DNA of 64,000 bases from Siphonodentalium dalli (Eukaryota > Mollusca > Scaphopoda > Gadilida > Siphonodentaliidae), in NCBI GenBank assembly GCA_032622095.1, contig CP136063.1, positions 24,616,987 through 24,680,986 of the forward strand, written 5' to 3'. Of this stretch, positions 22,734 to 60,078 are shown one piece after another. Below the pieces are notes generated by a model. It did no database searches and was not told the DNA's origin. It saw only the letters and a program-made list of their open reading frames with translations. Made by a program: the position numbers and the translations under genes. Each line of letters starts with the position of its first letter. The stretch's first letter is position 1.

Positions 22734-22771
22734 TGAACCATATAATATTACATGAGTATCTTTAATTTCAG

Positions 22772-22855
22772 CCTAATTAAACATTGCATCTATGCTAAAA
22801 TATCAGTAGGTCGCTGGGAACTGGACCGGATACAAGGACTGCAGTATACAGCACA
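22772..22855 (+). CDS. ADGRV1: ADGRV1-like adhesion GPCR, last recognised exon (exon G), source of the 37-bp array
   Basis: Acceptor ctttaatttcag|C, donor GCACA|gtaagt. The leading C completes Phe with TT from exon F. The 27 codons read LIKHCIYAKISVGRWELDRI and QGLQYTA, leaving CA. 'GRWELDR' and the preceding Cys fit a beta-rich continuation of the same extracellular region. The last 14 bases of this exon together with the first bases of the intron are the repeat unit of the 33-kb array that begins here. The next exon must begin by supplying one base. No GPS or seven-helix exon was recognised downstream; the 62926 exon is in the right phase but unproven. Confidence 0.7.
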
Positions 22856-25800
22856 GTAAGTCATCATTATTCTCCTCTTGGTATACAATGCATTTAGTCG
22901 TCATCATTCTCCTCTCGATATACAGCACAGTAAGTCACCATCGTTCTCCTTTCAGTATACAACACAGTAAGTCATCATTATTCTCCTCTTGGTATACAAT
23001 GCATTTAGTCGTCATCATTCTCCTCTCAATATACAGCACAGTAAGTCATCATCATTCTCCTCTTAGTATACAGCACAGTAAGTCACCATCATTCTCCTCT
23101 CAGTATACACACACTAAGTCACCAACATTCTCCTCTCAGTATTCAGCACAGTAAGTCACCATCATTCTCCTCTCAGTATTCAGCACAGTAAGTCACCATC
23201 ATTCTCCTCTCAGTATACAGCACAGTAAGTCATCATCATTCTCCTCTCAGTATACAGTCATGTAAGTCATCATCATTCTCCTCTCAGTATACAGTCATGT
23301 AAGTCATCATCATTCTCCTCTCAGTATACAACACAGTAAGTCACCATCATTCTCCTCTCAGTATAAAGCACAGTAAGTCACCATCATTCTCCTCTCAGTA
23401 TACAGCCATGTAAGTCATCATAATTCTCCTCTCAGTATACAACACAGTAAGTCACCATCATTCTCCTCTCAGTATTCAGCACAGGAGTCATCATCATTCT
23501 CCTCTCAGTATTCAGCACAGTAAGTCATCATCATTCTCCTTTCAGTATACAACACAGTAAGTCACCATCATTCTCCTCTCAGTATTCAGCACACTAAGTC
23601 ATCATCATTCACATCTCAGTATTCAGCACAGTAAGTCATCATCATTCTCCTCTCAGTATACAGCACAGTAAGTCATCATCATTCTCCTCTCAGTATACAG
23701 CACAGTAAGTCATCATCATTCTCCTTTCAGTATACAGCACAATAAGTCATCATCATTCTCCTCTCAGTATACAGCACAGTAAGTCACCATCATTCTCCTC
23801 TCAGTATACAGCATAGCAAGTCATCATCATTCTCCTCTCAGTATACAGCACAGTAAGTTATCATCATCCTCCTCTCAGTATACAGCACAGTAAGTCAGCA
23901 ACATTCTCCTTTCAGTATACAGCACAGTAAGTCACCATCATTCTCCTTTCAGTATACAGCACAGTAAGTCACCATCATTCTCCTCTCAGTATACAGCCAT
24001 GTAAGTCACCATCGTTCTCCTCTCAGTATACAGCACAGTAAGTCATCATCATTCTCCTCTCAGTATACAGCACAGTAAGTCATCATCATTCTCCTTTCAG
24101 TATACAGCACAATAAGTCATCATCATTCTCCTCTCAGTATACAGCACAGTAAGTCACCATCATTCTCCTCTCAGTATACAGCATAGCAAGTCATCATCAT
24201 TCTCCTCTCAGTATACAGCACAGTAAGTCACCATCATTCTCCTCTCAGTATACAGCATAGCAAGTCATCATCATTCTCCTCTCAGTATACAGCACAGTAA
24301 GTTATCATCATCCTCCTCTCAGTATACAGCACAGTAAGTCACCATCATTCTCCTCTCAGTATACAGCATAGCAAGTCATCATCATTCTCCTCTCAGTATA
24401 CAGCACAGTAAGTTATCATCATCCTCCTCTCAGTATACAGCACAGTAAGTCAGCAACATTCTCCTTTCAGTATACAGCACAGTAAGTCACCATCATTCTC
24501 CTCTCAGTATACAGCATAGCAAGTCATCATCATTCTCCTCTCAGTATACAGCACAGTAAGTCACCATCATTCTCCTCTCAGTATACAGCATAGCAAGTCA
24601 TCATCATTCTCCTCTCAGTATACAGCACAGTAAGTTATCATCATCCTCCTCTCAGTATACAGCACAGTAAGTCACCATCATTCTCCTCTCAGTATACAGC
24701 ATAGCAAGTCATCATCATTCTCCTCTCAGTATACAGCACAGTAAGTTATCATCATCCTCCTCTCAGTATACAGCACAGTAAGTCAGCAACATTCTCCTTT
24801 CAGTATACAGCACAGTAAGTCACCATCATTCTCCTTTCAGTATACAGCACAGTAAGTCACCATCATTCTCCTCTCAGTATACAGCCATGTAAGTCACCAT
24901 CGTTCTCCTATCAGTATACAGCACAGTAAGTCACCATCATTCTCCTCTCAATATACAGCACAGTAAGTCACCATCATTCTCCTTTCAGTATACAGCACAG
25001 TAAGTTATCATCATTCTCCTCTCAGTATACAGCACAGTAAGTTATCATCATTCTCCTCTCAGTATACAGCACAGTAAGTCATCATCATTCTCCTCTCAGT
25101 ATTCAGCACAGTAATTCACCATCATTCTCCTCTCAGTATTCAGCATAGTAAGTCACCATCATTCTCCTCTCAGTATACAGCACAGTAAGTCATCATCATT
25201 CTCCTCTCAGTATTCAGCACAGTAATTCACCATCATTCTCCTCTCAGTATATAGCATAGTAAGTCACCATCATTCTCCTCTCAGTATACAGCACAGTAAG
25301 TCATCATCATTCTCCTCTCAGTATTCAGCATACTAAGTCACCATCATTCTCCTCTCAGTATATAGCATAGTAAGTCACCATCATTCTCCTCTCAGTATAC
25401 AGCACAGTAAGTCACCATCATTCTCCTCTCAGTATACAGCACAGTAAGTCACCATTATTCTCCTCTCAGTATTCAGCATAGTAAGTCACCATCATTCTCC
25501 TCTCAGTATACAGCACAGTAAGTCATCATCATTCTCCTCTCAGTATTCAGCACAGTAATTCACCATCATTCTCCTCTCAGTATATAGCATAGTAAGTCAC
25601 CATCATTCTCCTCTCAGTATACAGCACAGTAAGTCATCATCATTCTCCTCTCAGTATTCAGCACAGTAATTCACCATCATTCTCCTCTCAGTATTCAGCA
25701 TAGTAAGTCACCATCATTCTCCTCTCAGTATACAGCACAGTAAGTCATCATCATTCTCCTCTCAGTATTCAGCACAGTAATTCACCATCATTCTCCTCTC

Positions 25801-28800
25801 AGTATATAGCATAGTAAGTCACCATCATTCTCCTCTCAGTATACAGCACAGTAAGTCATCATCATTCTCCTCTCAGTATTCAGCATACTAAGTCACCATC
25901 ATTCTCCTCTCAGTATATAGCATAGTAAGTCACCATCATTCTCCTCTCAGTATACAGCACAGTAAGTCACCATCATTCTCCTCTCAGTATACAGCACAGT
26001 AAGTCACCATTATTCTCCTCTCAGTATACAGCCATGTAAGTCACCATCATTCTCCTCTCAGTATACAGCCATGTAAGTCACCATCATTCTCCTCTCAGTA
26101 TATAGCACAGTAAGTCACCATCATTCTCCTCTCAGTATACAGCCATGTAAGTCACCATCATTCTCCTCTCGGTATACAGCACAGTAAGTCACCATCATTC
26201 TCCTCTCAGTATACAGCCATGTAAGTCACCATCATTCTCCTCTCAGCATACAGTACAGTAAGTCACCACCATTCTCCTCTCAGTATACAGCACAGTAAGT
26301 CACCATCATTCTCCTCTCAGTATACAGCACAGTAAGTCATCATCATTCTCCTCTCAGTATTCAGCATAGTAAGTCACCATCATTCTCCTCTCAGTATACA
26401 GCACAGTAAGTCATCATCATTCTCCTCTCAGTATACAGCCATGTAAGTCACCATCATTCTCCTCTCGGTATACAGCACAGTAAGTCACCATCATTCTCCT
26501 CTCAGTATACAGCCATGTAAGTCACCATCATTCTCCTCTCAGTATACAGCACAGTAAGTCATCATCATTCTCCTCTCAGTATTCAGCATAGTAAGTCACC
26601 ATCATTCTCCTCTCGGTATACAGCACAGTAAGTCATCATCATTCTCCTCTCAGTATACAGCCATGTAAGTCACCATCATTCTCCTCTCAGCATACAGTAC
26701 AGTAAGTCACCACCATTCTCCTCTCAGTATACAGCACAGTAAGTCACCATCATTCTCCTCTCAGTATACAGCACAGTAAGTCACCATCATTCTCCTCTCA
26801 GTATTCAGCATAGTAAGTCACCATCATTCTCCTCTCAGTATACAGCACAGTAATTCACCATCATTCTCCTCTCAGTATTCAGCATAGTAAGTCATCATCA
26901 TTCTCCTCTCAGTATTCAGCACAGTAATTCACCATCATTCTCCTCTCAGTATTCAGCATACTAAGTCACCATCATTCTCCTCTCAGTATTCAGCACAGTA
27001 AGTCACCATCATTCTCCTCTCAGTATACAGCACAGTAAGTCACCATCATTCTCCTCTCAGTATACAGCACAGTAAGTCACCATCATTCTCCTCTCAGTAT
27101 ACAGCACAGTAAGTCATCATCATTCTCCTCTCAGTATTCAGCATAGTAAGTCACCATCATTCTCCTCTCAGTATACAACACAGTAAGTCACCATCATTCT
27201 CCTCTCAGTATTCAGCACAGTAAGTCACCATCATTCTCCTCTCAGTATACAGCACAGTAAGTCACCATCATTCTCCTCTCAGTATACAGCACAGTAAGTC
27301 ACCATCATTCTCCTCTCAGTATACAGCACAGTAAGTCACCATCATTCTCCTCTCAGTATTCAGCATAGTAAGTCACCATCATTCTCCTCACAGTATACAG
27401 CACAGTAATTCACCATCATTCTCCTCTCAGTATTCAGCATAGTAAGTCATCATCATTCTCCTCTCAGTATTCAGCACAGTAATTCACCATCATTCTCCTC
27501 TCAGTATTCAGCATACTAAGTCACCATCATTCTCCTCTCAGTATATAGCATAGTAAGTCACCATCATTCTCCTCTCAGTATACAGCACAGTAAGTCACCA
27601 TCATTCTCCTCTCAGTATACAACACAGTAAGTCACCATCATTCTCCTCTCAGTATACAGCACAGTAATTCACCATCATTCTCCTCTCAGTATTCAGCATA
27701 GTAAGTCATCATCATTCTCCTCTCAGTATTCAGCACTGTAATTCACCATCATTCTCCTCTCAGTATTCAGCATACTAAGTCACCATCATTCTCCTCTCAG
27801 TATATAGCATAGTAAGTCACCATCATTCTCCTCTCAGTATACAGCACAGTAAGTCACCATCATTCTCCTCTCAGTATACAGCACAGTAAGTCACCATTAT
27901 TCTCCTCTCAGTATACAGCCATGTAAGTCACCATCATTCTCCTCTCAGTATACAGCCATGTAAGTCACCATCATTCTCCTCTCAGTATATAGCACAGTAA
28001 GTCACCATCATTCTCCTCTCAGTATACAGCCATGTAAGTCACCATCATTCTCCTCTCGGTATACAGCACAGTAAGTCACCATCATTCTCCTCTCAGTATA
28101 CAGCCATGTAAGTCACCATCATTCTCCTCTCAGCATACAGCACAGTAAGTCATCATCATTCTCCTCTCAGTATACAGCACAGTAAGTCATCATCATTCTC
28201 CTCTCAGTATACAGCCATGTAAGTCACCATCATTCTCCTCGCAGTATACAGCACAGTAAGTCATCATCATTCTACTCTCAGTATACAACACAGTAAGTAA
28301 CCATCATTCTCCCCTCAGTATACAGCACAGTAAGTCATCATCATTCTCCTCGCAGTATACAACACAGTAAGTCATCATCATTCTACTCTCAGTATACAAC
28401 ACAGTAAGTAACCATCATTCTCCCCTCAGTATACAGCACAGGAAGTCATCATCATTCTCCTCTCAGTATACAACACAGTAAGTCACCATCATTCTCCTCT
28501 CAGTATAAAGCACAGTAAGTCATCATCATTCTCTCAGTATACAGCACAGTAAGTCACCATCATTCTACTCTCAGTATACAGCCATGTAAGTCATCATCAT
28601 TCTCCTCTCAGTATACAGCACAGTAAGTCATCATCATTCTCCTCTCAGTATACAGCCATGTAAGCCGCCATCATTCTCCTCTCAGTATACAGCACAGTAA
28701 GTCATCATCATTCTCCTCTCAGTATACAGCATAGTAAGTCATCATCATTCTCCTCTCAGTATACAGCACAGTAAGTCATCATCATTCTACTCTCAGTATA

Positions 28801-31139
28801 CAACACAGTAAGTCATCATCATTCTCCTCTCAGTATACAGCGCAGTAAGTCATCATCATTCTCCTCTCAGTATACAGCACAGTAAGTCATCATCATTCTC
28901 CTCTCAGTATACAGCCATGTAAGTCACCATCATTCTCCTCGCAGTATACAGCACAGTAAGTCATCATCATTCTACTCTCAGTATACAACACAGTAAGTAA
29001 CCATCATTCTCCCCTCAGTATACAGCACAGGAAGTCATCATCATTCTCCTCTCAGTATACAACACAGTAAGTCACCATCATTCTCCTCTCAGTATAAAGC
29101 ACAGTAAGTCATCATCATTCTCTCAGTATACAGCACAGTAAGTCACCATCATTCTACTCTCAGTATACAGCCATGTAAGTCATCATCATTCTCCTCTCAG
29201 TATACAGCACACTCAGTATACAGCACAGTAAGTCACCATCATTCTCCTTTCAGTATACAACACAGTAAGTCATCAATATTCTCCTCTCAGTATACAACAC
29301 AGTAAGTCATCATCATTCTCCTTTCAGTATACAGCACATTAAGTCATCATCATTCTCCTCTCAGTATACAGCACAGTATACAGCATATTAAGTCACCATC
29401 ATTCTCCTTTCAGTATACAACACAGTAGGTCATCATCATTCTCCTTTCAGTATACAGCACAGTAAGTTATCATCATTCTCCTCTCAGTATACAGCACAGT
29501 AAGTCACCATCATTCTCCTCTCAGTATACAGCACATTAATTCATCATCATTCTCCTCTCAGTATTCAGCACAGTAAGTCACCATCATTCTCCTCTCAGTA
29601 TACAGCACAGTAAGCCATCATCATTCTCCTCTCAGTATACAACACAGTAAGTTATCATCATTCTCCTCTCAGTATACAGCACTGTAAGTCATCATCATCA
29701 TCATCCTCTCGGTATACAACACAGTAAGTCATCATCATTCTCCTCTCAGTATTCAGCACAGTAAGTCATCATTCTCCTCTCAGTATACAACACAGTAAGT
29801 CATCATCATCATCCTCTCAGTATACAGCACAGTAAGTTATCATCTCTCACCTCTCAGTATACATCATAGTAAGTCGCCATCATTCTCCTCTCAGTATACA
29901 CACACTAAGTCATCATAATTCTCCTCTCAGTATACAGCCATGTAAGTCATCATTCTCCTTTCAGTATTCAGCACAGTAAGTCACCATCATTCTCCTCTCA
30001 GTATACAGCACAGTAAGTCATCATTATTCTCCTCTCAGTATACACACACTAAGTCATCATCATTCTCCTCTCAGTATTAAGCACAGTAAGCCGCCATCAT
30101 TCTCCTCTCAGTATACAGCACAGTAAGTCATCATCATTCCCCTCTCAGTATACAACACAGTAAGTCACCATCATTCTCCTCTCAGTATACAGCACAGTAA
30201 GTCACCATCATTCTCCTCTCAGTATACAGCACAGTAAGTCACCATCATTCTCCTCTCAGTATTCAGCACAGTAAGTCACCATCATTCTCCTTTCAGTATT
30301 CAGCACAGTAAGTCACCATCATTCTCCTTTCAGTATTCAGCACAGTAAGTCACCATCATTCTCCTTTCAGTATTCAGCACAGTAAGTCACCATCATTCTC
30401 CCCTCAGTATACAGCACAGTAAGTCACCATCATTCTCCTTTCAGTATACAACACAGTAAGTCACCATCATTCTCCTCTCAGTATACAGCACAGTAAGTCA
30501 TCATCATTCTCCTCTCAGTATACAGCACAGTAAGTCATCATTATTCTCCTTTCAGTATTCAGCACAGTAAGTCACCATCATTCTCCTCTCAGTATACAGC
30601 ACAGTAAGTCATCATCATTCTCCTCTCAGTATACAGCACAGTAAGTCATCATCATTCTCCTCTCAGTATTCAGCACAGTAAGTCACCATCATTCTCCTTT
30701 CAGTATTCAGCACAGTAAGTCACCATCATTCTCCTTTCAGTATACAACACAGTAAGTCATCATCATTCTCCTCTCAGTATACAGCACAGTAAGTCATCAT
30801 CATTCTCCTCTCAGTATTCAGCACAGTAAGTCACCATCATTCTCCTTTCAGTATTCAGCACAGTAAGTCACCATCATTCTCCCCTCAGTATACAGCACAG
30901 TAAGTCACCATCATTCTCCTCTCAGTATACAGCACAGTAAGTCACCATCATTCTCCTCTCAGTATACAGCACAGTAAGTCATCATCATTCTCCTCTCAGT
31001 ATACAGCACAGTAAGTCATCATTATTCTCCTCTCAGTATACAGCACAGTAAGTCATCATCATTCTCCTCTCAGTATACAACACAGTAAGTCATCATCATT
31101 CTCCTCTCAGTATACAGCACAGTAAGTCATCATCATTCT

Positions 31140-31970
31140 CCTCTCAGTATACAGCGCAGTAAGTCATCATCATTCTCCTCTCAGTATACAGCATAGTAAG
31201 TCATCATCATTCTCCTCTCAGTATACAGCACAGTAAGTCATCATCATTCTCCTCTCAGTATACAACACAGTAAGTCATCATCATTCTCCTCTCAGTATAC
31301 AGCACAGTAAGTCATCATCATTCTCCTCTCAGTATACAGCGCAGTAAGTCATCATCATTCTCCTCTCAGTATACAGCATAGTAAGTCATCATCATTCTCC
31401 TCTCAGTATACAGCACAGTAAGTCATCATCATTCTCCTCTCAGTATTCAGCATACTAAGTCACCATCATTCTCCTCTCAGTATACAGCACAGTAAGTCAT
31501 CATCATTCTCCTCTCAGTATACAACACAGTAAGTCATCATCATTCTCCTCTCAGTATACAGCACAGTAAGTCATCATCATTCTCCTCTCAGTATACAGCG
31601 CAGTAAGTCATCATCATTCTCCTCTCAGTATACAGCATAGTAAGTCATCATCATTCTCCTCTCAGTATACAGCACAGTAAGTCATCATCATTCTCCTCTC
31701 AGTATACAACACAGTAAGTCATCATCATTCTCCTCTCAGTATACAGCACAGTAAGTCATCATCATTCTCCTCTCAGTATACAGCGCAGTAAGTCATCATC
31801 ATTCTCCTCTCAGTATACAGCATAGTAAGTCATCATCATTCTCCTCTCAGTATACAGCACAGTAAGTCATCATCATTCTCCTCTCAGTATACAACACAGT
31901 AAGTCATCATCATTCTCCTCTCAGTATACAGCACAGTAAGTCATCATCATTCTCCTCTCAGTATACAGCC
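31140..31970 (+). repeat. Higher-order repeat, period about 185 bp (five units)
   Basis: The diagnostic variant acagcgcag appears near 31152, 31337, 31595 and 31783. The order cgcag, catag, cacag, aacacag, cacag repeats between them, with one interval enlarged to seven units by two extra copies. Near-identity of the blocks implies recent local amplification. Confidence 0.75.
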
Positions 31971-34900
31971 ATGTAAGCCGCCATCATTCTCCTCGCAGTA
32001 TACAACACAGTAAGTCATCATCATTCTACTCTCAGTATACAGCACAGTAAGTCATCATCATTCTCCTCGCAGTATACAGCCATGTAAGTCATCATCATTC
32101 TACTCTCAGTATACAACACAGTAAGTCATCATCATTCTCCTCGCAGTATACAGCACAGTAAGTCACCATCATTCTCCTCTCAGTATACAACACAGTAAGT
32201 CATCATCATTCTCCTCGCAGTATACAGCACAGTAAGTCATCATCATTCTCCTCGCAGTATACAGCACAGTAAGTCATCATCATTCTCCTCTCAGTATACA
32301 GCCATGTAAGTTATCATCATTCTCCTCTCAGTATACAGCATAGTAAGTAACCATCATTCTCCTCTCAGTATACAGCACAGTAAGTCATCATCATTCTCCT
32401 CGCAGTATACAGCACAGTAAGTCACCATCATTCTCCTCTCAGTATACAACACAGTAAGTCATCATCATTCTCCTCGCAGTATACAGCACAGTAAGCCGCC
32501 ATCATTCTCCTCGCAGTATACAACACAGTAAGTCATCATCATTCTCCTCTCAGTATACAGCCATGTAAGTTATCATCATTCTCCTCTCAGTATACAGCCA
32601 TGTAAGCCGCCATCATTCTCCTCGCAGTATACAGCCATGTAAGTTATCATCATTCTCCTCTCAGTATACAGCCATGTAAGCCGCCATCATTCTCCTCGCA
32701 GTATACAGCCATGTAAGTTATCATCATTCTCCTCTCAGTATACAGCCATGTAAGTTATCATCATTCTCCTCTCAGTATACAGCATACTCAGTATACAGCA
32801 CAGTAAGTCATCATCATTCTCCTCTCAGTATACAGCCATGTAAGTTATCATCATTCTCCTCTCAGTATACAGCACAGTAAGTAACCATCATTCTCCTCTC
32901 AGTATACAGCACAGTAAGTCATCATCATTCTCCTCTCAGTATACAGCACAGTAAGTAACCATCATTCTCCTCTCAGTATACAGCATAGTAAGTAATCATC
33001 ATTCTCCTCTCAGTATACAACACAGTAAGTCACCATCATTCTCCTCGCAGTATACAGCACAGTAAGTTATCATCATTCTCCTCTCAGTATACAACACAGT
33101 AAGTCATCATCATTCTCCTCTCAGTATACAGCCATGTAAGCCGCCATCATTCTCCTCTCAGTATACAGCACAGTAAGTCACCATCATTCTACTCTCAGTA
33201 TACAGCACAGTAAGTTATCATCATTCTCCTCTCAGTATACAGCACAGTAAGTTATCATCATTCTCCTCTCAGTATACAGCCATGTAAGCCGCCATCATTC
33301 TCCTCTCAGTATACAACACAGTAAGTCATCATCATTCTCCTCTCAGTATACAGCCATGTAAGCCGCCATCATTCTCCTCTCAGTATACAGCACAGTAAGT
33401 TATCATCATTCTCCTCTCAGTATACAACACAGTAAGTCATCATCATTCTCCTCTCAGTATACAACACAGTAAGTCACCATCATTCTCCTCTCAGTATACA
33501 GCACAGTAAGTCATCATCATTCTCCTCTCAGTATACAGCCATGTAAGCCGCCATCATTCTCCTCTCAGTATACAGCATAGTAAGTAATCATCATTCTCCT
33601 CTCAGTATACAACACAGTAAGTCATCATCATTCTCCTCTCAGTATACAGCCATGTAAGCCGCCATCATTCTCCTCGCAGTATACAGCACAGTAAGTCATC
33701 ATCATTCTCCTCTCAGTATACAGCACAGTAAGTCATCATCATTCTCCTCTCAGTATACAGCACAGTAAGTCATCATCATTCTCCTCTCAGTATACAGCAC
33801 AGTAAGTTATCATCATTCTCCTCTCAGTATACAGCACAGTAAGTCATCATCATTCTCCTCTCAGTATACAGCACAGTAAGTCATCATCATTCTCCTCTCA
33901 GTATACAGCACAGTAAGTCACCATCATTCTCCTCTCAGTATACAGCACAGTAAGTCATCATCATTCTCCTCTCAGTATACAGCACAGTAAGTCATCATCA
34001 TTCTCCTCTCAGTATACAGCACAGTAAGTCATCATCATTCTCCTCGCAGTATACAGCACAGTAAGTCATCATCATTCTCCTCTCAGTATACAGCACAGTA
34101 AGTCATCATTATTCTCCTCTCAGTATACAGCCATGTAAGTCACCATCATTCTCCTCTCAGTATACAGCACAGTAAGTTATCATCATTCTCCTCTCAGTAT
34201 ACAGCCATGTAAGCCGCCATCATTCTCCTCTCAGTATACAGCACAGTAAGTTATCATCATTCTCCTCTCAGTATACAGCACAGTAAGTCATCATCATTCT
34301 CCTCTCAGTATTCAGCACAGTAAGTCACCATCATTCTCCTCTCAGTATACAGCCATGTAAGCCGCCATCATTCTCCTCTCAGTATACAACACAGTAAGTC
34401 ATCATCATTCTCCTCTCAGTATACAGCCATGTAAGCCGCCATCATTCTCCTCTCAGTATACAGCACAGTAAGTTATCATCATTCTCCTCTCAGTATACAA
34501 CACAGTAAGTCATCATCATTCTCCTCTCAGTATACAACACAGTAAGTCATCATCATTCTCCTCTCAGTATACAACACAGTAAGTCATCATCATTCTCCTC
34601 TCAGTATACAGCCATGTAAGCCGCCATCATTCTCCTCGCAGTATACAGCACAGTAAGTTATCATCATTCTCCTCTCAGTATACAGCCATGTAAGCCGCCA
34701 TCATTCTCCTCGCAGTATACAGCACAGTAAGTCATCATCATTCTCCTCTCAGTATACAGCACAGTAAGTCATCATCATTCTCCTCGCAGTATACAACACA
34801 GTAAGTCATCATCATTCTCCTCTCAGTATACAGCATAGTAAGTAATCATCATTCTCCTCTCAGTATACAGCCATGTAAGCCGCCATCATTCTCCTCGCAG

Positions 34901-42120: not shown

Positions 42121-45100
42121 TCTCCTCGCAGTATACAACACAGTAAGTTATCATCATTCTCCTCTCAGTATACAGCACAGTAAGTCATCATCATTCTCCT
42201 CTCAGTATACAGCCATGTAAGCCGCCATCATTCTCCTCGCAGTATACAGCACAGTAAGTCATCATCATTCTCCTCGCAGTATACAACACAGTAAGTCATC
42301 ATCATTCTCCTCTCAGTATACAGCCATGTAAGCCGCCATCATTCTCCTCGCAGTATACAACACAGTAAGTAACCATCATTCTCCTCTCAGTATACAGCAC
42401 AGTAAGTAACCATCATTCTCCTCTCAGTATACAGCACAGTAAGTTATCATCATTCTCCTCTCAGTATACAACACAGTAAGTAACCATCATTCTCCTCTCA
42501 GTATACAACACAGTAAGTAACCATCATTCTCCTCTCAGTATACAGCACAGTAAGTTATCATCATTCTCCTCTCAGTATACAGCATAGTAAGTAACCATCA
42601 TTCTCCTCTCAGTATACAACACAGTAAGTCACCATCATTCTCCTCTCAGTATACAGCACAGTAAGTTATCATCATTCTCCTCTCAGTATACAGCATAGTA
42701 AGTAACCATCATTCTCCTCTCAGTATACAGCACAGTAAGTTATCATCATTCTCCTCTCAGTATACAGCACAGTAAGTCATCATCATTCTCCTCTCAGTAT
42801 ACAACACAGTAAGTCATCATCATTCTCCTCTCAGTATACAGCCATGTAAGCCGCCATCATTCTCCTCTCAGTATACAGCACAGTAAGTTATCATCATTCT
42901 CCTCTCAGTATACAGCACAGTAAGTCATCATCATTCTCCTCTCAGTATACAGCACAGTAAGTCATCATCATTCTCCTCTCAGTATACAGCACAGTAAGTC
43001 ATCATCATTCTCCTCTCAGTATACAGCACAGTAAGTCATCATCATTCTCCTCTCAGTATACAGCACAGTAAGTCATCATCATTCTCCTCTCAGTATACAA
43101 CACAGTAAGTCATCATCATTCTCCTCTCAGTATACAGCATAGTAAGTAACCATCATTCTCCTCGCAGTATACAGCACAGTAAGTTATCATCATTCTCCTC
43201 TCAGTATACAGCATAGTAAGTAACCATCATTCTCCTCTCAGTATACAGCACAGTAAGTTATCATCATTCTCCTCTCAGTATACAGCACAGTAAGTTATCA
43301 TCATTCTCCTCTCAGTATACAGCACAGTAAGTTATCATCATTCTCCTCTCAGTATACAGCATAGTAAGTAACCATCATTCTCCTCTCAGTATACAACACA
43401 GTAAGTCATCATCATTCTCCTCTCAGTATACAGCATAGTAAGTAACCATCATTCTCCTTTCAGTATACAGCACAGTAAGTCACCATCATTCTCCTCTCAG
43501 TATACAGCACAGTAAGTCACCATCATTCTCCTCTCAGTATACAGCACAGTAAGTCATCATCATTCTCCTCTCAGTATACAGCACAGTAAGTCATCATCAT
43601 TCTCCTCTCAGTATACAACACAGTAAGTCATCATCATTCTCCTCTCAGTATACAGCACAGTAAGTCATCATCATTCTCCTCGCAGTATACAGCACAGTAA
43701 GTCATCATCATTCTCCTCTCAGTATACAGCACAGTAAGTCATCATCATTCTCCTCTCAGTATACAGCCATGTAAGCCGCCATCATTCTCCTCGCAGTATA
43801 CAGCACAGTAAGTCATCATCATTCTCCTCTCAGTATACAGCACAGTAAGTCATCATCATTCTCCTCTCAGTATACAGCCATGTAAGTCACCATCATTCTC
43901 CTCGCAGTATACAGCACAGTAAGTCATCATCATTCTCCTCTCAGTATACAGCCATGTAAGCCGCCATCATTCTCCTCGCAGTATACAGCACAGTAAGTCA
44001 TCATCATTCTCCTCTCAGTATACAGCACAGTAAGTTATCATCATTCTCCTCTCAGTATACAGCACAGTAAGTCACCATCATTCTCCTCGCAGTATACAGC
44101 ACAGTAAGTCATCATCATTCTCCTCTCAGTATACAGCCATGTAAGTCACCATCATTCTCCTCTCAGTATACAACACAGTAAGTCATCATCATTCTCCTTT
44201 CAGTATAAAGCACAGTAAGTCATAATCATTATCTCAGTATACAGCACAGTAAGTCATCATCATTCTCCTCTCAGTATACAGCACAGTAAGTCATCATCAT
44301 TCTCCTCTCAGTATACAGCCATGTAAGTCACCATCATTCTCCTCTCAGTATACAGCCATGTAAGTCACCATCATTCTCCTCTCAGTATACAGCACAGTAA
44401 GTCATCATCATTCTCCTCTCAGTATACAGCCATGTAAGTCACCATCATTCTCCTCTCAGTATACAGCACAGTAAGTCATCATCATTCTACTCTCAGTATA
44501 CAACACAGTAAGTCATCATCATTCTCCTCTCAGTATACAGCGCAGTAAGTCATCATCATTCTCCTCTCAGTATACAACACAGTAAGTCACCATCATTCTC
44601 CTCTCAGTATACAGCACAGTAAGTCATCATCATTCTCCTCTCAGTATACAGCGCAGTAAGTCATCATCATTCTCCTCTCAGTATACAACACAGTAAGTCA
44701 TCATCATTCTCCTCTCAGTATACAGCACAGTAAGTCATCATCATTCTACTCTCAGCATACAGCACAGTAAGTCATCATCATTCTACTCTCAGCATACAGC
44801 ACAGTAAGTCATCATCATTCTCCTCTCAGTATACAGCACAGTAAGTCATCATCATTCTCCTCTCAGTATACAGCGCAGTAAGTCATCATCATTCTCCTCT
44901 CAGTATACAACACAGTAAGTCATCATCATTCTCCTCTCAGTATACAGCGCAGTAAGTCATCATCATTCTACTCTCAGCATACAGCACAGTAAGTCATCAT
45001 CATTCTCCTCTCAGTATACAGCACAGTAAGTCATCATCATTCTCCTCTCAGTATACAGCACAGTAAGTCATCATCATTCTCCTCTCAGTATACAGCGCAG

Positions 45101-45479
45101 TAAGTCATCATCATTCTCCTCTCAGTATACAACACAGTAAGTCATCATCATTCTCCTCTCAGTATACAGCACAGTAAGTCATCATCATTCTACTCTCAGC
45201 ATACAGCACAGTAAGTCATCATCATTCTACTCTCAGCATACAGCACAGTAAGTCATCATCATTCTCCTCTCAGTATACAGCACAGTAAGTCATCATCATT
45301 CTCCTCTCAGTATACAGCGCAGTAAGTCATCATCATTCTCCTCTCAGTATACAACACAGTAAGTCATCATCATTCTCCTCTCAGTATACAGCGCAGTAAG
45401 TCATCATCATTCTACTCTCAGCATACAGCACAGTAAGTCATCATCATTCTCCTCTCAGTATACAGCACAGTAAGTCATC

Positions 45480-48400
45480 ATCATTCTCCTCTCAGTATAC
45501 AGCCATGTAAGTCACCATCATTCTCCTCTCAGTATACAGCCATGTAAGTCACCATCATTCTCCTCTCAGTATACAGCACAGTAAGTCATCATCATTCTCC
45601 TCTCAGTATACAGCCATGTAAGTCACCATCATTCTCCTCTCAGTATACAGCACAGTAAGTCATCATCATTCTACTCTCAGTATACAACACAGTAAGTCAT
45701 CATCATTCTCCTCTCAGTATACAGCGCAGTAAGTCATCATCATTCTCCTCTCAGTATACAACACAGTAAGTCACCATCATTCTCCTCTCAGTATACAGCA
45801 CAGTAAGTCATCATCATTCTCCTCTCAGTATACAGCGCAGTAAGTCATCATCATTCTCCTCTCAGTATACAACACAGTAAGTCACCATCATTCTCCTCTC
45901 AGTATACAGCACAGTAAGTCATCATCATTCTACTCTCAGTATACAGCACAGTAAGTCATCATCATTCTCCTCTCAGTATACAGCACAGTAAGTCATCATC
46001 ATTCTCCTCTCAGTATACAGCACAGTAAGTCATCATCATTCTCCTCTCAGTATACAGCACAGTAAGTCATCATCATTCTCCTCTCAGTATACAGCACAGT
46101 AAGTCATCATCATTCTCCTCTCAGTATACAGCACAGTAAGTCATCATCATTCTCCTCTCAGTATACAGCACAGTAAGTCATCATCATTCTCCTCTCAGTA
46201 TAAAGCACAGTAAGTTATCATCATTCTCCTCTCAGTATACAGCACAGTAAGTCATCATCATTCTCCTCTCAGTATACAGCACAGTAAGCCGCCATCATTC
46301 TCCTCGCAGTATACAGCACAGTAAGTCATCATCATTCTACTCTCAGTATACAGCACAGTAAGTCATCATCATTCTCCTCTCAGTATACAGCACAGTAAGT
46401 CATCATCATTCTCCTCTCAGTATACAGCATAGTAAGTCATCATCATTCTCCTCTCAGTATACAGCCATGTAAGCCGCCATCATTCTCCTCGCAGTATACA
46501 GCACAGTAAGTCATCATCATTCTACTCTCAGTATACAGCACAGTAAGTCATCATCATTCTCCTCTCAGTATACAGCACAGTAAGTCATCATCATTCTCCT
46601 CTCAGTATACAGCCATGTAAGCCGCCATCATTCTCCTCGCAGTATACAGCACAGTAAGTCATCATCATTCTACTCTCAGTATACAGCACAGTAAGTCATC
46701 ATCATTCTCCTCTCAGTATACAGCACAGTAAGTCATCATCATTCTACTCTCAGTATACAGCACAGTAAGTCATCATCATTCTACTCTCAGTATACAACAC
46801 AGTAAGTCACCATCATTCTCCTCTCAGTATACAGCCATGTAAGCCGCCATCATTCTCCTCTCAGTATACAGCACAGTAAGTCATCATCATTCTACTTTCA
46901 GTATACAGCACAGTAAGTCATCATCATTCTCCTCTCAGTATACAGCACAGTAAGTCATCATCATTCTACTCTCAGTATACAGCACAGTAAGTCATCATCA
47001 TTCTCCTCTCAGTATACAACACAGTAAGTCACCATCATTCTCCTCTCAGTATACAACACAGTAAGTCATCATCATTCTCCTCTCAGTATACAGCCATGTA
47101 AGCCGCCATCATTCTCCTCTCAGTATACAGCACAGTAAGTCATCATCATTCTCCTCTCAGTATACAACACAGTAAGTCATCATCATTCTCCTCTCAGTAT
47201 ACAGCCATGTAAGCCGCCATCATTCTCCTCTCAGTATACAGCACAGTAAGTCATCATCATTCTACTTTCAGTATACAGCACAGTAAGTCATCATCATTCT
47301 ACTCTCAGTATACAACACAGTAAGTTATCATCATTCTCCTTTCAGTATAAAGCACAGTAAGTCATAATCATTATCTCAGTATACAGCACAGTAAGTCATC
47401 ATCATTCTCCTCTCAGTATACAGCCATGTAAGTCACCATCATTCTCCTCGCAGTATACAGCACAGTGAGTCATCATCATTCTACTCTCAGTATACAACAC
47501 AGTAAGTTATCATCATTCTCCTTTCAGTATAAAGCACAGTAAGTCATAATCATTATCTCAGTATACAGCACAGTAAGTCACCATCATTCTCCTCTCAGTA
47601 TTCAGCACAGTAAGTCATCATCATTATCCTCTCAGTATAAAGCACAGTAAGTCATCATCATTCTCCTCTCAGTATACAGCACAGTAAGTCATCATCATTC
47701 TCCTCTCAGTATACAACACAGTAAGTCATCATCATTCTCCTCTCAGTATTCAGCACAGTAAGTCATCATCATTATCCTCTCAGTATACAGCCATGTAAGT
47801 CATCATCATTCTCCTCTCAGTATACAGCCATGTAAGTCATCATCATTCTCCTCTCAGTATACAGCACACTCAGTATACAGCACATTAAGTCATCATCATT
47901 CTCCTCTCAGTATACAGCACAGTAAGTCATCATCATTCTCCTCTCAGTATACAGCACAGTAAGTCACCACCATTCTCCTCTCAGTATACAGCATAGTAAG
48001 TCATCATCATTCTCCTCTCAGTATACAGCACAGTAAGTCATCATCATTCTACTCTCAGTATACAACACAGTAAGTTATCATCATTCTCCTTTCAGTATAA
48101 AGCACAGTAAGTCATAATCATTATCTCAGTATACAGCACAGTAAGTCATCATCATTCTCCTCTCAGTATACAGCCATGTAAGTCACCATCATTCTCCTCG
48201 CAGTATACAGCCATGTAAGTCACCATCATTCTCCTCGCAGTATACAGCACAGTAAGTCATCATCATTCTCCTCTCAGTATACAGCACAGTAAGTCATCAT
48301 CATTCTCCTCTCAGTATACAGCCATGTAAGTCACCATCATTCTCCTCTCAGTATACAGCCATGTAAGTCACCATCATTCTCCTCTCAGTATACAGCACAG

Positions 48401-50910
48401 TAAGTCATCATCATTCTCCTCTCAGTATACAGCCATGTAAGTCACCATCATTCTCCTCTCAGTATACAGCACAGTAAGTCATCATCATTCTACTCTCAGT
48501 ATACAACACAGTAAGTCATCATCATTCTCCTCTCAGTATACAGCGCAGTAAGTCATCATCATTCTCCTCTCAGTATACAACACAGTAAGTCACCATCATT
48601 CTCCTCTCAGTATACAGCACAGTAAGTCATCATCATTCTCCTCTCAGTATACAGCGCAGTAAGTCATCATCATTCTCCTCTCAGTATACAACACAGTAAG
48701 TCACCATCATTCTCCTCTCAGTATACAGCACAGTAAGTCATCATCATTCTACTCTCAGTATACAGCACAGTAAGTCATCATCATTCTCCTCTCAGTATAC
48801 AGCACAGTAAGTCATCATCATTCTCCTCTCAGTATACAGCACAGTAAGTCATCATCATTCTCCTCTCAGTATACAGCACAGTAAGTCATCATCATTCTCC
48901 TCTCAGTATACAGCACAGTAAGTCATCATCATTCTCCTCTCAGTATACAGCACAGTAAGTCATCATCATTCTCCTCTCAGTATACAGCACAGTAAGTCAT
49001 CATCATTCTCCTCTCAGTATAAAGCACAGTAAGTTATCATCATTCTCCTCTCAGTATACAGCACAGTAAGTCATCATCATTCTCCTCTCAGTATACAGCA
49101 CAGTAAGCCGCCATCATTCTCCTCGCAGTATACAGCACAGTAAGTCATCATCATTCTACTCTCAGTATACAGCACAGTAAGTCATCATCATTCTCCTCTC
49201 AGTATACAGCACAGTAAGTCATCATCATTCTCCTCTCAGTATACAGCACAGTAAGTCATCATCATTCTCCTCTCAGTATACAACACAGTAAGTCATCATC
49301 ATTCTACTCTCAGTATACAGCACAGTAAGTCATCATCATTCTCCTCTCAGTATACAGCCATGTAAGCCGCCATCATTCTCCTCGCAGTATACAGCACAGT
49401 AAGTCATCATCATTCTACTCTCAGTATACAGCACAGTAAGTCATCATCATTCTCCTCTCAGTATACAGCACAGTAAGTCATCATCATTCTACTCTCAGTA
49501 TACAGCACAGTAAGTCATCATCATTCTACTCTCAGTATACAACACAGTAAGTCACCATCATTCTCCTCTCAGTATACAGCCATGTAAGCCGCCATCATTC
49601 TCCTCTCAGTATACAGCACAGTAAGTCATCATCATTCTACTTTCAGTATACAGCACAGTAAGTCATCATCATTCTCCTCTCAGTATACAGCCATGTAAGC
49701 CGCCATCATTCTCCTCGCAGTATACAGCACAGTAAGTCATCATCATTCTACTCTCAGTATACAGCACAGTAAGTCATCATCATTCTCCTCTCAGTATACA
49801 ACACAGTAAGTCACCATCATTCTCCTCTCAGTATACAGCCATGTAAGCCGCCATCATTCTCCTCTCAGTATACAGCACAGTAAGTCATCATCATTCTCCT
49901 CTCAGTATACAGCACAGTAAGTCATCATCATTCTACTTTCAGTATACAGCACAGTAAGTCATCATCATTCTACTCTCAGTATACAACACAGTAAGTTATC
50001 ATCATTCTCCTTTCAGTATAAAGCACAGTAAGTCATAATCATTATCTCAGTATACAGCACAGTAAGTCATCATCATTCTCCTCTCAGTATACAGCCATGT
50101 AAGTCACCATCATTCTCCTCGCAGTATACAGCACAGTAAGTCATCATCATTCTACTCTCAGTATACAACACAGTAAGTTATCATCATTCTCCTTTCAGTA
50201 TAAAGCACAGTAAGTCATAATCATTATCTCAGTATACAGCACAGTAAGTCACCATCATTCTCCTCTCAGTATTCAGCACAGTAAGTCATCATCATTATCC
50301 TCTCAGTATAAAGCACAGTAAGTCATCATCATTCTCCTCTCAGTATACAGCACAGTAAGTCATCATCATTCTCCTCTCAGTATACAACACAGTAAGTCAT
50401 CATCATTCTCCTCTCAGTATTCAGCACAGTAAGTCATCATCATTATCCTCTCAGTATACAGCCATGTAAGTCATCATCATTCTCCTCTCAGTATACAGCC
50501 ATGTAAGTCATCATCATTCTCCTCTCAGTATACAGCACACTCAGTATACAGCACATTAAGTCATCATCATTCTCCTCTCAGTATACAGCACAGTAAGTCA
50601 TCATCATTCTCCTCTCAGTATACAGCACAGTAAGTCACCACCATTCTCCTCTCAGTATACAGCATAGTAAGTCATCATCATTCTCCTCTCAGTATACAGC
50701 ACAGTAAGTCATCATCATTCTACTCTCAGTATACAACACAGTAAGTTATCATCATTCTCCTTTCAGTATAAAGCACAGTAAGTCATAATCATTATCTCAG
50801 TATACAGCACAGTAAGTCATCATCATTCTCCTCTCAGTATACAGCCATGTAAGTCACCATCATTCTCCTCGCAGTATACAGCCATGTAAGTCACCATCAT
50901 TCTCCTCGCA
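45480..50910 (+). repeat. Kilobase-scale duplications within the array
   Basis: The order of variants in 45480-46400 matches 48300-49220 (for example tataaagcacagtaagttat at 46201 and 49020, about 2.8 kb apart). The segment with ataatcattatctcag and tataaagcac at 47310-48250 matches 49970-50910, about 2.66 kb apart. These are block duplications on top of unit-level repeats. Confidence 0.7.
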
Positions 50911-51389
50911 GTATACAGCACAGTAAGTCATCATCATTCTACTCTCAGTATACAGCACAGTAAGTCATCATCATTCTACTCTCAGTATACAGCACAGTAA
51001 GTCATCATCATTCTCCTCTCAGTATACAGCCATGTAAGTCACCATCATTCTCCTCGCAGTATACAGCACAGTAAGTCATCATCATTCTCCTCGCAGTATA
51101 CAGCACAGTAAGTCATCATCATTCTCCTCTCAGTATACAGCCATGTAAGTCACCATCATTCTCCTCGCAGTATACAGCACAGTAAGTCATCATCATTCTA
51201 CTCTCAGTATACAGCACAGTAAGTCATCATCATTCTCCTCTCAGTATACAGCACAGTAAGTCATCATCATTCTACTCTCAGTATACAACACAGTAAGTTA
51301 TCATCATTCTCCTCTCAGTATACAGCCATGTAAGTCACCATCATTCTCCTCGCAGTATACAGCACAGTAAGTCATCATCATTCTACTCT

Positions 51390-54300
51390 CAGTATACAAC
51401 ACAGTAAGTTATCATCATTCTCCTTTCAGTATAAAGCACAGTAAGTCATAATCATTATCTCAGTATACAGCACAGTAAGTCACCATCATTCTCCTCTCAG
51501 TATACAGCACAGTAAGTCACCATCATTCTCCTCTCAGTATTCAGCACAGTAAGTCATCATCATTATCCTCTCAGTATAAAGCACAGTAAGTCATCATCAT
51601 TCTCCTCTCAGTATACAGCACAGTAAGTCATCATCATTCTCCTCTCAGTATACAACACAGTAAGTCATCATCATTCTCCTCTCAGTATTCAGCACAGTAA
51701 GTCATCATCATTCTCCTCTCAGTATTCAGCACAGTAAGTCATCATCATTATCCTCTCAGTATAAAGCACAGTAAGTCATCATCATTCTCCTCTCAGTATA
51801 CAGCACAGTAAGTCATCATCATTATCCTCTCAGTATAAAGCACAGTAAGTCACCATCATTCTCCTTTCAGTATAAAGCACAGTAAGTCATCATCGTTATT
51901 TCAGTATTCAGCACAGTAAGTCACCACCATTCTCCTCTCAGTATACAGCACAGTAAGTCATCATCATTTTCCTCTCAGTATACAACACAGTAAGTTATCA
52001 TCATTCTCCTCTCAGTATAAAGCACAGTAAGTCATCATCATTCTCCTCTCAGTATACAGCCATGTAAGTCACCATCATTCTCCTCTCAGTATACAGCACA
52101 GTAAGTCATCATCATTCTCCTCTCAGTATACAACACAGTAAGTCATCATCATTCTCCTCTCAGTATACAGCACAGTAAGTCATCATCATTATCCTCTCAG
52201 TATACAGCCATGTAAGTCATCATCATTCTCCTCTCAGTATACAGCACAGTAAGTCATCATCATTCTACTCTCAGTATACAACACAGTAAGTCATCATCAT
52301 TCTCCTCTCAGTATACAGCCATGTAAGTCATCATCATTCTCCTCTCAGTATACAGCACAGTAAGTCATCATCATTCTCCTCTCAGTATACAGCACAGTAA
52401 GTCATCATCATTCTCCTCTCAGTATACAGCGCAGTAAGTCATCATCATTCTCCTCTCAGTATACAGCATAGTAAGTCATCATCATTCTCCTCTCAGTATA
52501 CAGCACAGTAAGTCATCATCATTCTCCTCTCAGTATACAGCACAGTAAGTCATCATCATTCTCCTCTCAGTATACAACACAGTAAGTCATCATCATTCTA
52601 CTCTCAGTATACAACACAGTAAGTCATCATCATTCTCCTCTCAGTATACAGCCATGTAAGCCGCCATCATTCTCCTCTCAGTATACAGCACAGTAAGTCA
52701 TCATCATTCTCCTCTCAGTATACAGCACAGTAAGTCATCATCATTCTACTCTCAGTATACAACACAGTAAGTTATCATCATTCTCCTTTCAGTATAAAGC
52801 ACAGTAAGTCATAATCATTATCTCAGTATACAGCACAGTAAGTCACCATCATTCTCCTCTCAGTATACAGCACAGTAAGTCATCATCATTCTCCTCTCAG
52901 TATACAGCCATGTAAGTCACCATCATTCTCCTCTCAGTATACAGCACAGTAAGTCATCATCATTCTCCTCTCAGTATACAGCCATGTAAGTCACCATCAT
53001 TCTCCTCTCAGTATACAGCACAGTAAGTCATCATCATTCTCCTCTCAGTATACAGCCATGTAAGTCACCATCATTCTCCTCTCAGTATACAGCCATGTAA
53101 GCCGCCATCATTCTCCTCTCAGTATACAGCACAGTAAGTCATCATCATTCTACTCTCAGTATACAGCACAGTAAGTCATCATCATTCTCCTCTCAGTATA
53201 CAACACAGTAAGTCATCATCATTCTCCTCTCAGTATACAGCACAGTAAGTCATCATCATTCTCCTCTCAGTATACAGCACAGTAAGTCATCATCATTCTC
53301 CTCTCAGTATACAGCACAGTAAGTCATCATCATTCTCCTCTCAGTATACAGCACAGTAAGTCATCATCATTCTACTCTCAGTATACAGCACAGTAAGTCA
53401 TCATCATTCTCCTCTCAGTATACAGCACAGTAAGTCATCATCATTCTCCTCTCAGTATACAACACAGTAAGTCATCATCATTCTCCTCTCAGTATACAAC
53501 ACAGTAAGTCATCATCATTCTCCTCTCAGTATACAACACAGTAAGTCATCATCATTCTCCTCTCAGTATACAGCACAGTAAGTCATCATCATTCTCCTCT
53601 CAGTATACAGCACAGTAAGTCATCATCATTCTCCTCTCAGTATACAGCACAGTAAGTCATCATCATTCTCCTCTCAGTATACAGCACAGTAAGTCATCAT
53701 CATTCTACTCTCAGTATACAGCACAGTAAGTCATCATCATTCTCCTCTCAGTATACAGCACAGTAAGTCATCATCATTCTACTCTCAGTATACAGCACAG
53801 TAAGTCATCATCATTCTCCTCTCAGTATACAGCACAGTAAGTCATCATCATTCTCCTCTCAGTATACAACACAGTAAGTCATCATCATTCTACTCTCAGT
53901 ATACAGCACAGTAAGTCATCATCATTCTACTCTCAGTATACAGCACAGTAAGTCATCATCATTCTCCTCTCAGTATACAACACAGTAAGTCATCATCATT
54001 CTACTCTCAGTATACAACACAGTAAGTCACCATCATTCTCCTCTCAGTATACAGCCATGTAAGCCGCCATCATTCTCCTCTCAGTATACAGCACAGTAAG
54101 TCATCATCATTCTACTTTCAGTATACAACACAGTAAGTTATCATCATTCTCCTTTCAGTATAAAGCACAGTAAGTCATAATCATTATCTCAGTATACAGC
54201 ACAGTAAGTCATCATCATTCTCCTCTCAGTATACAGCCATGTAAGTCACCATCATTCTCCTCGCAGTATACAGCACAGTAAGTCATCATCATTCTACTCT

Positions 54301-55691
54301 CAGTATACAACACAGTAAGTTATCATCATTCTCCTTTCAGTATAAAGCACAGTAAGTCATAATCATTATCTCAGTATACAGCACAGTAAGTCACCATCAT
54401 TCTCCTCTCAGTATTCAGCACAGTAAGTCATCATCATTATCCTCTCAGTATAAAGCACAGTAAGTCATCATCATTCTCCTCTCAGTATACAGCACAGTAA
54501 GTCATCATCATTCTCCTCTCAGTATACAACACAGTAAGTCATCATCATTCTCCTCTCAGTATTCAGCACAGTAAGTCACCATCATTCTCCTCTCAGTATA
54601 CAGCATAGTAAGTCATCATCATTCTCCTCTCAGTATACAGCCATGTAAGTCATCATCATTCTCCTCTCAGTATACAGCACACTCAGTATACAGCACATTA
54701 AGTCATCATCATTCTCCTCTCAGTATACAGCACAGTAAGTCATCATCATTCTCCTCTCAGTATACAGCACAGTAAGTCACCACCATTCTCCTCTCAGTAT
54801 ACAGCATAGTAAGTCATCATCATTCTCCTCTCAGTATACAGCACAGTAAGTCATCATCATTCTACTCTCAGTATACAACACAGTAAGTTATCATCATTCT
54901 CCTTTCAGTATAAAGCACAGTAAGTCATAATCATTATCTCAGTATACAGCACAGTAAGTCATCATCATTCTCCTCTCAGTATACAGCCATGTAAGTCACC
55001 ATCATTCTCCTCGCAGTATACAGCACAGTAAGTCATCATCATTCTACTCTCAGTATACAACACAGTAAGTTATCATCATTCTCCTTTCAGTATAAAGCAC
55101 AGTAAGTCATAATCATTATCTCAGTATACAGCACAGTAAGTCACCATCATTCTCCTCTCAGTATACAGCACAGTAAGTCACCATCATTCTCCTCTCAGTA
55201 TTCAGCACAGTAAGTCATCATCATTATCCTCTCAGTATAAAGCACAGTAAGTCATCATCATTCTCCTCTCAGTATACAGCACAGTAAGTCATCATCATTC
55301 TCCTCTCAGTATACAACACAGTAAGTCATCATCATTCTCCTCTCAGTATTCAGCACAGTAAGTCATCATCATTCTCCTCTCAGTATTCAGCACAGTAAGT
55401 CATCATCATTATCCTCTCAGTATAAAGCACAGTAAGTCATCATCATTCTCCTCTCAGTATACAGCACAGTAAGTCATCATCATTATCCTCTCAGTATAAA
55501 GCACAGTAAGTCACCATCATTCTCCTTTCAGTATAAAGCACAGTAAGTCATCATCGTTATTTCAGTATTCAGCACAGTAAGTCACCACCATTCTCCTCTC
55601 AGTATACAGCACAGTAAGTCATCATCATTTTCCTCTCAGTATACAACACAGTAAGTTATCATCATTCTCCTCTCAGTATAAAGCACAGTAA
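51390..55691 (+). repeat. 3.66-kb block duplication at the right edge of the array
   Basis: Rare variants such as catcgttatttcag occur at 51893 and 55554, 3661 bases apart (about 99 units). The order of units around both is the same, down to the tcatcatcattttcctctc variant that follows. The second copy is cut at 55691 by the start of the ACGT-rich element, which therefore marks the array border. Confidence 0.75.
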
Positions 55692-57496: not shown

Positions 57497-57548
57497 ATGA
57501 ACATCACCAACTTCAACTGGGGAACTTCAATCTTATCCTAAGTCTCAA

Positions 57549-57623
57549 CAGAATGATGTCCCCGGAGGGTGAATTTGATGAGGCTAGCCCGATGTACATT
57601 CATCACCTGGGGATCTCATTCTG
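57549..57623. mobile_element. Mini fold-back (cagaatga ends), copy 1
   Basis: Ends cagaatgatgtccccgg and the complement of cagaatgagatccccagg enclose 40 bases. The same family is at 59934-60024 near the other inner edge of the composite, in inverted order relative to its right flank (tgtcatttgcagaatga). Confidence 0.65.
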
Positions 57624-60024: not shown

Positions 60025-60078
60025 CTTAGGCCTCATCTTCTCTGGAAAGTTTCTTTATTATAACTTCTTCACATAGAT

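What the first reader, a model, noticed from the sequence alone, without database searches (positions are those of the whole stretch)
22842..55691. A 33-kb intron satellite in which each of about 890 units carries a 5' and a 3' splice-site consensus around an 11-nt pseudo-microexon
The sequence shows unit after unit reading pyrimidines-ctcag | tatacagcaca | gtaagt. The donor matches U1 consensus at all but one position and the acceptor has a good pyrimidine tract. This is a dense array of splicing decoys or U1/U2AF binding sites in a transcribed intron. Known biology: adjacent sites 26 nt apart are below the usual intron minimum, so neighbouring units should not splice to each other, but distant ones could, giving recursive splicing, microexon inclusion (11 nt shifts frame; three copies restore it) or sequestration of splicing factors. 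Inference: such a structure must be tolerated by selection or silenced, and it is a natural test of how cells choose true sites.
Basis: partly seen in the sequence, partly recalled or inferred. Interest (0 to 1): 0.93.

Follow-up and report, generated by a model that had tools for sequence, protein, structure and literature searches.

The report
Intron repeat array mimicking splice sites
A 37-letter sequence that happens to look like the start and end signals of a tiny exon is repeated about 950 times inside one intron of an animal gene resembling the giant receptor ADGRV1; it is most likely an ordinary runaway repeat, but it would be a good natural test of how cells ignore false splice signals.

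Summary
The array is real. Window 22842-55691 holds 893 head-to-tail 37-bp units; 841 carry both the AG and the GT around an 11-nt pseudo-microexon. It lies sense-oriented between phase-compatible coding exons (21282-21446, and 69804-69867 outside the window), with ADGRV1/VLGR1-like exons further 3' on the same strand. Corrections: the common donor is ACA|GTAAGT (6 of 9 with U1), not 'all but one'; and 55691 is where a 10.76-kb DNA transposon splits the array, which resumes outside the window to 68713. Genome-wide counts place the unit in two arrays: this one (35.1 kb) and a 6.5-kb one in a ~99% identical copy of the locus on the same contig. Splice columns are no better conserved than others, and comparable paired sites occur in 0.14% of local sense 37-mers. 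Best reading: a passively expanding intronic minisatellite whose founder unit happened to look like splice sites. Active decoy splicing is not excluded, since decoy donors match the neighbouring exon's own weak donor; RNA data are needed.

The parts
22842..55691 (+). 37-bp tandem array, 893 units; unit CAGTATACAGCACAGTAAGTCATCATCATTCTCCTCT = pseudo-acceptor, 11-nt pseudoexon, pseudo-donor; main part of the array
21282..21446 (+). Coding exon A immediately 5' of the array (LSSSVINDAV...PAPPH), acceptor CTTTCAG, weak donor CTT|GTGAGT, exit phase 2
   Evidence: open frame, splice sites, phase-compatible with exon B; 1 synonymous difference in 165 nt between the two copies. No database match, no RNA
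55692..64000 (.). DNA transposon inserted in the array (whole element to window-equivalent 66450; ends CCCAGTAGGCAC.../...GTGCCCACTGGG, AA target duplication); the array resumes at 66451-68713
   Evidence: cannot lie within array 2, whose whole span is 6.5 kb
55755..57112 (+). 121-bp tandem repeat, a subterminal part of the inserted transposon, not of the 37-bp array
22490..22735 (.). MITE-like interspersed repeat (approximate ends) with TATATAAG-rich inverted arms, about 100 bp from the array start; many partial or whole copies, roughly 70-88% identical, in the 314 kb read
   Evidence: (query about 2802-3047)
14839..14946 (+). Putative upstream coding exon (TLKNLDTIAQDQLDDDQ...), predicted only
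   Evidence: ad hoc exon scan; no Pfam match

Best explanation
It is an intronic minisatellite (VNTR) that grew by unequal exchange or slippage inside one intron of what is probably an ADGRV1-like gene. The founding 37-bp stretch happened to contain a pyrimidine tract plus CAG and, 11 nt on, GTAAGT; amplification copied these passively. In the cell the array is most likely removed as part of one long intron (48.4 kb in this copy, 9.0 kb in the other), exon A joining exon B, because decoys lie in an 11-nt/26-nt rhythm too tight for paired recognition and exon B's acceptor is stronger than any decoy; only low-level noise splicing is expected. Shown: the array, its sense place between phase-compatible exons, the copy-number difference, the lack of extra conservation at splice columns. 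Inferred: that the gene is transcribed, removal as one intron, noise level, mechanism of growth.
For: Head-to-tail 37-bp units with block repeats of up to 26 consecutive identical units; the same left and right array boundaries in two ~99% identical copies of the locus but 35.1 vs 6.5 kb of array; genome-wide 971 matches at up to 3 mismatches, of which 867 lie in the read parts of the two arrays and the other 104 fit the 4.1 kb of array 2 not read; AG+GT columns not more conserved than random column sets (P 0.18 by units, 0.29 by unit types), 8 of 29 single-step singleton mutations in AG/GTAAGT columns against 6.3 expected; exons A, B, C intact in both copies with 2 synonymous differences in 310 nt; best decoy acceptor 8.9 against 12.06 for exon B; comparable sites in 0.14% of local sense 37-mers.
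Against: For this one array, paired splice-like sites this good are improbable (2 of 5000 shuffles; 0 of 79 other local arrays). Decoy donors score slightly above the real exon A donor and decoy acceptors above the exon A acceptor, so complete silence is not assured. The pyrimidine tract is borderline better conserved when units are counted (P 0.05). Conservation tests have little power because units are homogenised. No RNA evidence either way.
Confidence: 0.77

Rival explanations
1. The units are active weak splice sites: exon A splices at times into the array and on to exon B through composite pseudoexons of 11+37k nt (or in recursive steps), lowering or diversifying the host mRNA in a copy-number-dependent way. 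The 48-nt form is frame-keeping; longer ones mostly bring stops and decay.
For: Sense orientation; 911 of 933 array acceptors (AG before TAT/CAT) and 814 of 879 array donors score at or above exon A's own sites, 785 eleven-nt pseudoexons have both; 48-nt composites are in frame and open in 713 of 795 cases, 85-nt and most longer ones carry a stop; the U1 5' end is the canonical ATACTTACCTG in the 2 of 42 U1 matches that I read.
Against: No decoy reaches exon B's acceptor (12.06) or donor (10.57); only 23 of 933 acceptors have a yTnAy branch-point-like motif 15-45 nt upstream, though 850 have the looser TnAy; no added conservation of AG/GT columns; both copies keep exons A-C intact despite a fivefold difference in array length.
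Confidence: 0.13
2. The array was favoured as a dense U1/U2AF landing platform, for example to block premature polyadenylation in a very long intron (telescripting).
For: 25.4 donors per kb (score 6 or more, + strand) against 1.9 per kb in flanks, and no AATAAA/ATTAAA in 32,850 bp against 539 in 268,128 bp of flank.
Against: Both follow from repeating any 37-mer that has one such site and lacks the hexamer; the intron is long chiefly because of the array and the transposon, so there would be little to protect without them; the shorter copy exists; no extra conservation.
Confidence: 0.04
3. Assembly artefact: array length or the second copy is wrong (copy 2 being a misplaced second haplotype).
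For: Copy 2 is colinear at five of seven probes spread over 217 kb of copy 1 (191 kb of copy 2) at 97.7-99.5% identity, on the same contig 130 Mb away, as a misplaced haplotig would be.
Against: No N in the 314 kb read; array units are heterogeneous (117 distinct units) with non-random order; both copies share the array boundaries. An artefact would change the length or the number of copies, not the existence of the array.
Confidence: 0.06

Closest known systems
CACNA1C intronic 30-bp VNTR (TRACT), PMC13131567 (preprint), abstract read
   Same: Intronic minisatellite of similar unit size; 3-30+ kb alleles with bimodal length (~6 and ~24 kb), reminiscent of 6.5 vs 35.1 kb here
   Different: Human; splice-like units are not mentioned in its abstract; population and expression data exist there, none here
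TERT intron 6 38-bp VNTR, PMC3948165 and PMC11830802, abstracts read
   Same: Intronic repeat of nearly the same unit length; shows that such an array can change splicing of its host
   Different: Its abstracts invoke RNA:RNA pairing or G-quadruplexes, not decoy splice sites; no antisense partner of our unit beyond shuffles in the flanks
IFI6/G1P3 minisatellite giving multiple splice donor sites (Nucleic Acids Res 1995;23:1854; only the title seen, in the reference list of PMC2572611; gene name from that context and recall)
   Same: A minisatellite whose units carry splice donors
   Different: By its title the donors serve a transcript; here use is unknown, and each unit also has an acceptor
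UBC tandem dual-specific splice sites, PMC10809524, abstract and discussion read
   Same: A tandem array of splice-site-like units in a gene
   Different: One AGGT serves as both sites at the borders of coding repeats; here AG and GT are 11 nt apart, in an intron

Membership tests
Intronic minisatellite / VNTR | Head-to-tail array of 10-100 bp units | tested here: met
   37 bp, 893 units in the window, about 61 more beyond the transposon
Intronic minisatellite / VNTR | Lies within an intron | tested here: met
   Exon A (phase 2 exit) and exon B (fitting entry) flank it on the same strand in both copies; by sequence only, not confirmed by RNA
Intronic minisatellite / VNTR | Copy number varies between alleles | tested here: inconclusive
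   35.1 vs 6.5 kb between two ~99% identical loci; whether alleles or paralogues is open; no population data
Splice-donor minisatellite (IFI6 type) | Units used as splice sites in transcripts | not testable with these tools
   No RNA reads available
Dual-specific or recursive (AG|GT) splice sites | Adjacent AGGT acting as both sites | tested here: not met
   Consensus unit has no AGGT; AG and GT are 11 nt apart
TERT-type repeat acting by RNA:RNA pairing | Repeat complementary to the host pre-mRNA elsewhere | tested here: inconclusive
   Best antisense match in 268 kb of flank 22.3 bits; 40 shuffled units mean 23.1, max 26.3. No support, but short or gapped pairing would be missed
ADGRV1 host gene | GPS and 7-TM exons like ADGRV1 on the same strand | tested here: met
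   277 residues strung from 6 predicted exons: PDB 9fte_A ADGRV1 E 5.9e-44; Pfam 7tm_2 7.2e-08 above cut-off, GPS 0.015 below cut-off
ADGRV1 host gene | Calx-beta repeats upstream | tested here: inconclusive
   One of seven upstream exon candidates scanned hits Calx-beta, E 8.6e-4, below Pfam's cut-off
ADGRV1 host gene | Exons A-C next to the array belong to that gene | tested here: inconclusive
   Same strand, fitting phases, exon C about 12 kb 5' of the GPS exon, but no sequence match for A-C in Pfam, PDB or the protein collection

The most novel reading that the evidence does not exclude
The array is a working splice-decoy field: about 900 paired weak 3' and 5' sites in a single intron that compete with exon A's weak donor, so that array length tunes how much full-length ADGRV1-like mRNA is made, with occasional in-frame 48-nt (16-residue) insertions.
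Probability: 0.08. Interest if true: 0.78.

Novelty: new member of a known kind. Interest (0 to 1): 0.36.

Why it matters
How the spliceosome ignores very many decoys is an open question. Here one intron offers about 900 near-identical sense decoys as strong as the neighbouring real donor, with a natural short-array copy of the same locus as a built-in control. RNA from this one locus would show directly whether site density, spacing or strength decides. If the decoys are silent, as expected, that too is informative and the locus itself is ordinary.

Tried and rejected
Rejected: a coding tandem repeat (37 is not a multiple of 3, and composites of 85 nt and most longer sizes bring stops in the host frame); an array antisense to its neighbours (flanking exons are sense); a genome-wide satellite (counts fit two arrays; one lone exact 17-mer match on the other strand was also counted, and not located); dual-specific AGGT sites (absent from the consensus). 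No support: RNA:RNA pairing as in TERT. Led nowhere: Pfam scan of 45 window ORFs chosen by eye from the 82 of at least 70 aa (7 families, one member each, best E 0.013, none convincing); database searches for exons A-C. The species was not identified. The full extent of the duplicated locus was not found: the probe at 154523000 should lie just beyond the flank held and says nothing; the probe at 154403000 found no match.

Caveats: splice weight matrices, the codon table and minimum-intron arguments are recalled approximations, not taken from this species; the letters of the U1 5' end were recalled and then seen in 2 genomic U1 copies. Exon candidates came from an ad hoc scan limited to the window plus 30 kb upstream and the 45 kb held downstream of the array. 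The genome search tool warns that counts of repeats may be lower bounds, and its listings were cut at 100 places.

Full report
WHAT IS THERE. Tandem Repeats Finder gives one array at 22842-55691, period 37, 886.5 copies. My wrap-around alignment cuts it into 893 units, 861 of exactly 37 nt, 117 distinct sequences. The consensus reads CAGTATACAGCACAGTAAGTCATCATCATTCTCCTCT: a pyrimidine stretch ending in CAG, 11 nt (TATACAGCACA or variants), then GTAAGT. AG is kept in 874 of 893 units, GT in 858, GTAAGT in 760, AG and GT together in 841. Two details are not. The usual donor is ACA|GTAAGT, mismatched to the consensus at -2 and -1; only CAT|GTAAGT units (80) miss at one position. And 55691 is where a 10,759-bp DNA transposon enters (18 of 20 terminal letters match by eye, AA duplicated at the target), not where the array ends: it goes on for 2,263 bp at window-equivalent 66451-68713, beyond the window. 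Total array 35.1 kb.

WHERE IT LIES. I read 200 kb upstream and 50 kb downstream. An exon with acceptor, donor and open frame ends at 21446 in phase 2 (exon A); exon B (69804-69867) begins in the fitting phase and exon C (70872-70952) follows in phase 0, all on +. Further 3' on the same strand, six predicted exons strung together give a 277-residue GPS/7-TM stretch that matches ADGRV1 in the Protein Data Bank (9fte_A, E 5.9e-44) and Pfam 7tm_2 (7.2e-08); one of seven upstream exon candidates weakly resembles Calx-beta (8.6e-4, below the cut-off). I infer that A-C belong to this ADGRV1/VLGR1-like gene; A-C themselves match nothing. The intron is 48.4 kb.

A SECOND COPY. The unit occurs 971 times genome-wide at up to 3 mismatches, all on the + strand (the tool calls such counts possible lower bounds and listed only 100 places); 769 are in the window and 818 in the 314 kb. 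The listed places outside the window all fall at C3:154.475-154.479 Mb, where the flanks of the array recur: 2535 of 2551 aligned bases identical on the left, 2523 of 2542 on the right, 454 of 462 further right, with the same array boundaries, but only 6,501 bp of array and a 9.0-kb intron. Eight and 41 matches lie in the read pieces of array 2; the remaining 104 fit the 4.1 kb (about 110 units) that I did not read. Exons A-C differ by 2 synonymous bases in 310. Seven short probes were fetched around copy 2: five match colinearly at 97.7-99.5%, from window-equivalent -131528 to 85350; one (154403000) finds nothing; one (154523000) should lie just beyond the flank held and matches only repeats. 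This is either a recent large duplication or a second haplotype misplaced in the assembly; I cannot tell. In both cases array length differs about fivefold with nearly unchanged flanks, which is how minisatellites behave.

ARE THE SITES GOOD, AND ARE THEY KEPT? The U1 5' end in this genome is the canonical ATACTTACCTG in both U1 copies that I read, of 42 matches. Computed U1 duplexes: common array donor -5.3 kcal/mol, exon A's own donor -5.2, exon B -11.1, exon C -9.5. With recalled weight matrices 911 of 933 array acceptors (AG before TAT or CAT) and 814 of 879 array donors reach exon A's own scores and 785 eleven-nt pseudoexons have both; none reaches exon B's. So these are weak but not negligible decoys, next to a weak real donor. 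A yTnAy branch-point-like motif precedes only 23 of 933 acceptors, the looser TnAy 850. Are the sites favoured? Column by column over the 861 full-length units, AG+GT are not more conserved than random sets of columns (P 0.18 by units, 0.29 by distinct units; AG+GTAAGT 0.11 and 0.10); the pyrimidine tract is borderline by units (0.05) and not by types (0.21), and in that tract pyrimidine-to-purine changes (30) are as common as pyrimidine-keeping ones (31), against 27 and 86 elsewhere. Of 29 single-step singleton mutations 8 fall in AG/GTAAGT columns against 6.3 expected. Five other columns never vary. Nothing points clearly to upkeep of splice sites, although homogenisation limits power.

CHANCE. 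Both sites this good occur in 2 of 5000 dinucleotide shuffles and 1 of 5000 plain shuffles of the unit, in 372 of 268,091 sense 37-mers of the surrounding DNA (131 antisense), and in 0 of 79 other local tandem-repeat rows. Lack of polyadenylation hexamers (0 in 32,850 bp; 539 in 268,128 bp of flank) follows from repeating one short sequence.

WHAT IT MOST LIKELY DOES. Most likely nothing specific: if the gene is transcribed, the array is removed with its intron. Adjacent decoys are 11 and 26 nt apart, too close for normal pairing (general knowledge). If used at all, composite exons of 11+37k nt are the plausible products: 48 nt is in frame and open in 713 of 795 cases, while 85 nt and most longer sizes carry stops, so use would mostly lower the mRNA. 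That is a testable minority view.

COMPARISON WITH THE KNOWN. Intronic VNTRs of this size and variability are known (CACNA1C, 30 bp, 3-30+ kb; PMC13131567, abstract), intronic 38-bp repeats can alter splicing (TERT; PMC3948165, PMC11830802, abstracts), a minisatellite supplying splice donors has been reported (title only, via PMC2572611), and tandem dual-specific sites exist in UBC (PMC10809524, abstract and discussion). AGGT dual sites do not apply here, and antisense pairing has no support. In the listings of my four searches for arrays carrying splice sites I saw no array with both a 3' and a 5' site in each of hundreds of units, but these searches are narrow and cover only openly licensed papers. 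I file it as a new member of a known kind with an unusual, probably accidental, unit.

Noticed in passing
window 55692-64000, continuing to window-equivalent 66450 (L029 1-2450): A 10.76-kb DNA transposon with ends CCCAGTAGGCAC / GTGCCCACTGGG, AA target duplication, a 121-bp tandem array near one end and an 83-bp array near the other; it cannot be inside array 2 of the second copy, which spans only 6.5 kb.
   Followed up: partly
G000 C3:154303000-154493600 vs C3:24485458-24702336: A colinear copy of the locus (five of seven probes match, 97.7-99.5% identical; 217 kb of copy 1), 130 Mb away on the same contig: recent segmental duplication or misplaced haplotype.
   Followed up: partly
G000 C1:103842444-103879156: 17 U1 snRNA matches at a spacing of about 2.15 kb (one gap of double size), and other U1 clusters on C4 and C6.
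   Followed up: no
window 3858-4602: A 150-bp tandem repeat (4.9 copies, with a 301-bp double period).
   Followed up: no
window 6720-7266, - strand: Broken reading frames that look by eye like transposase remains; no convincing Pfam hit among the 45 ORFs scanned, which include them.
   Followed up: no
window about 22490-22735: An interspersed MITE-like repeat lying about 100 bp from the array start, with many copies in the 314 kb read; it may mark a break-prone site.
   Followed up: no
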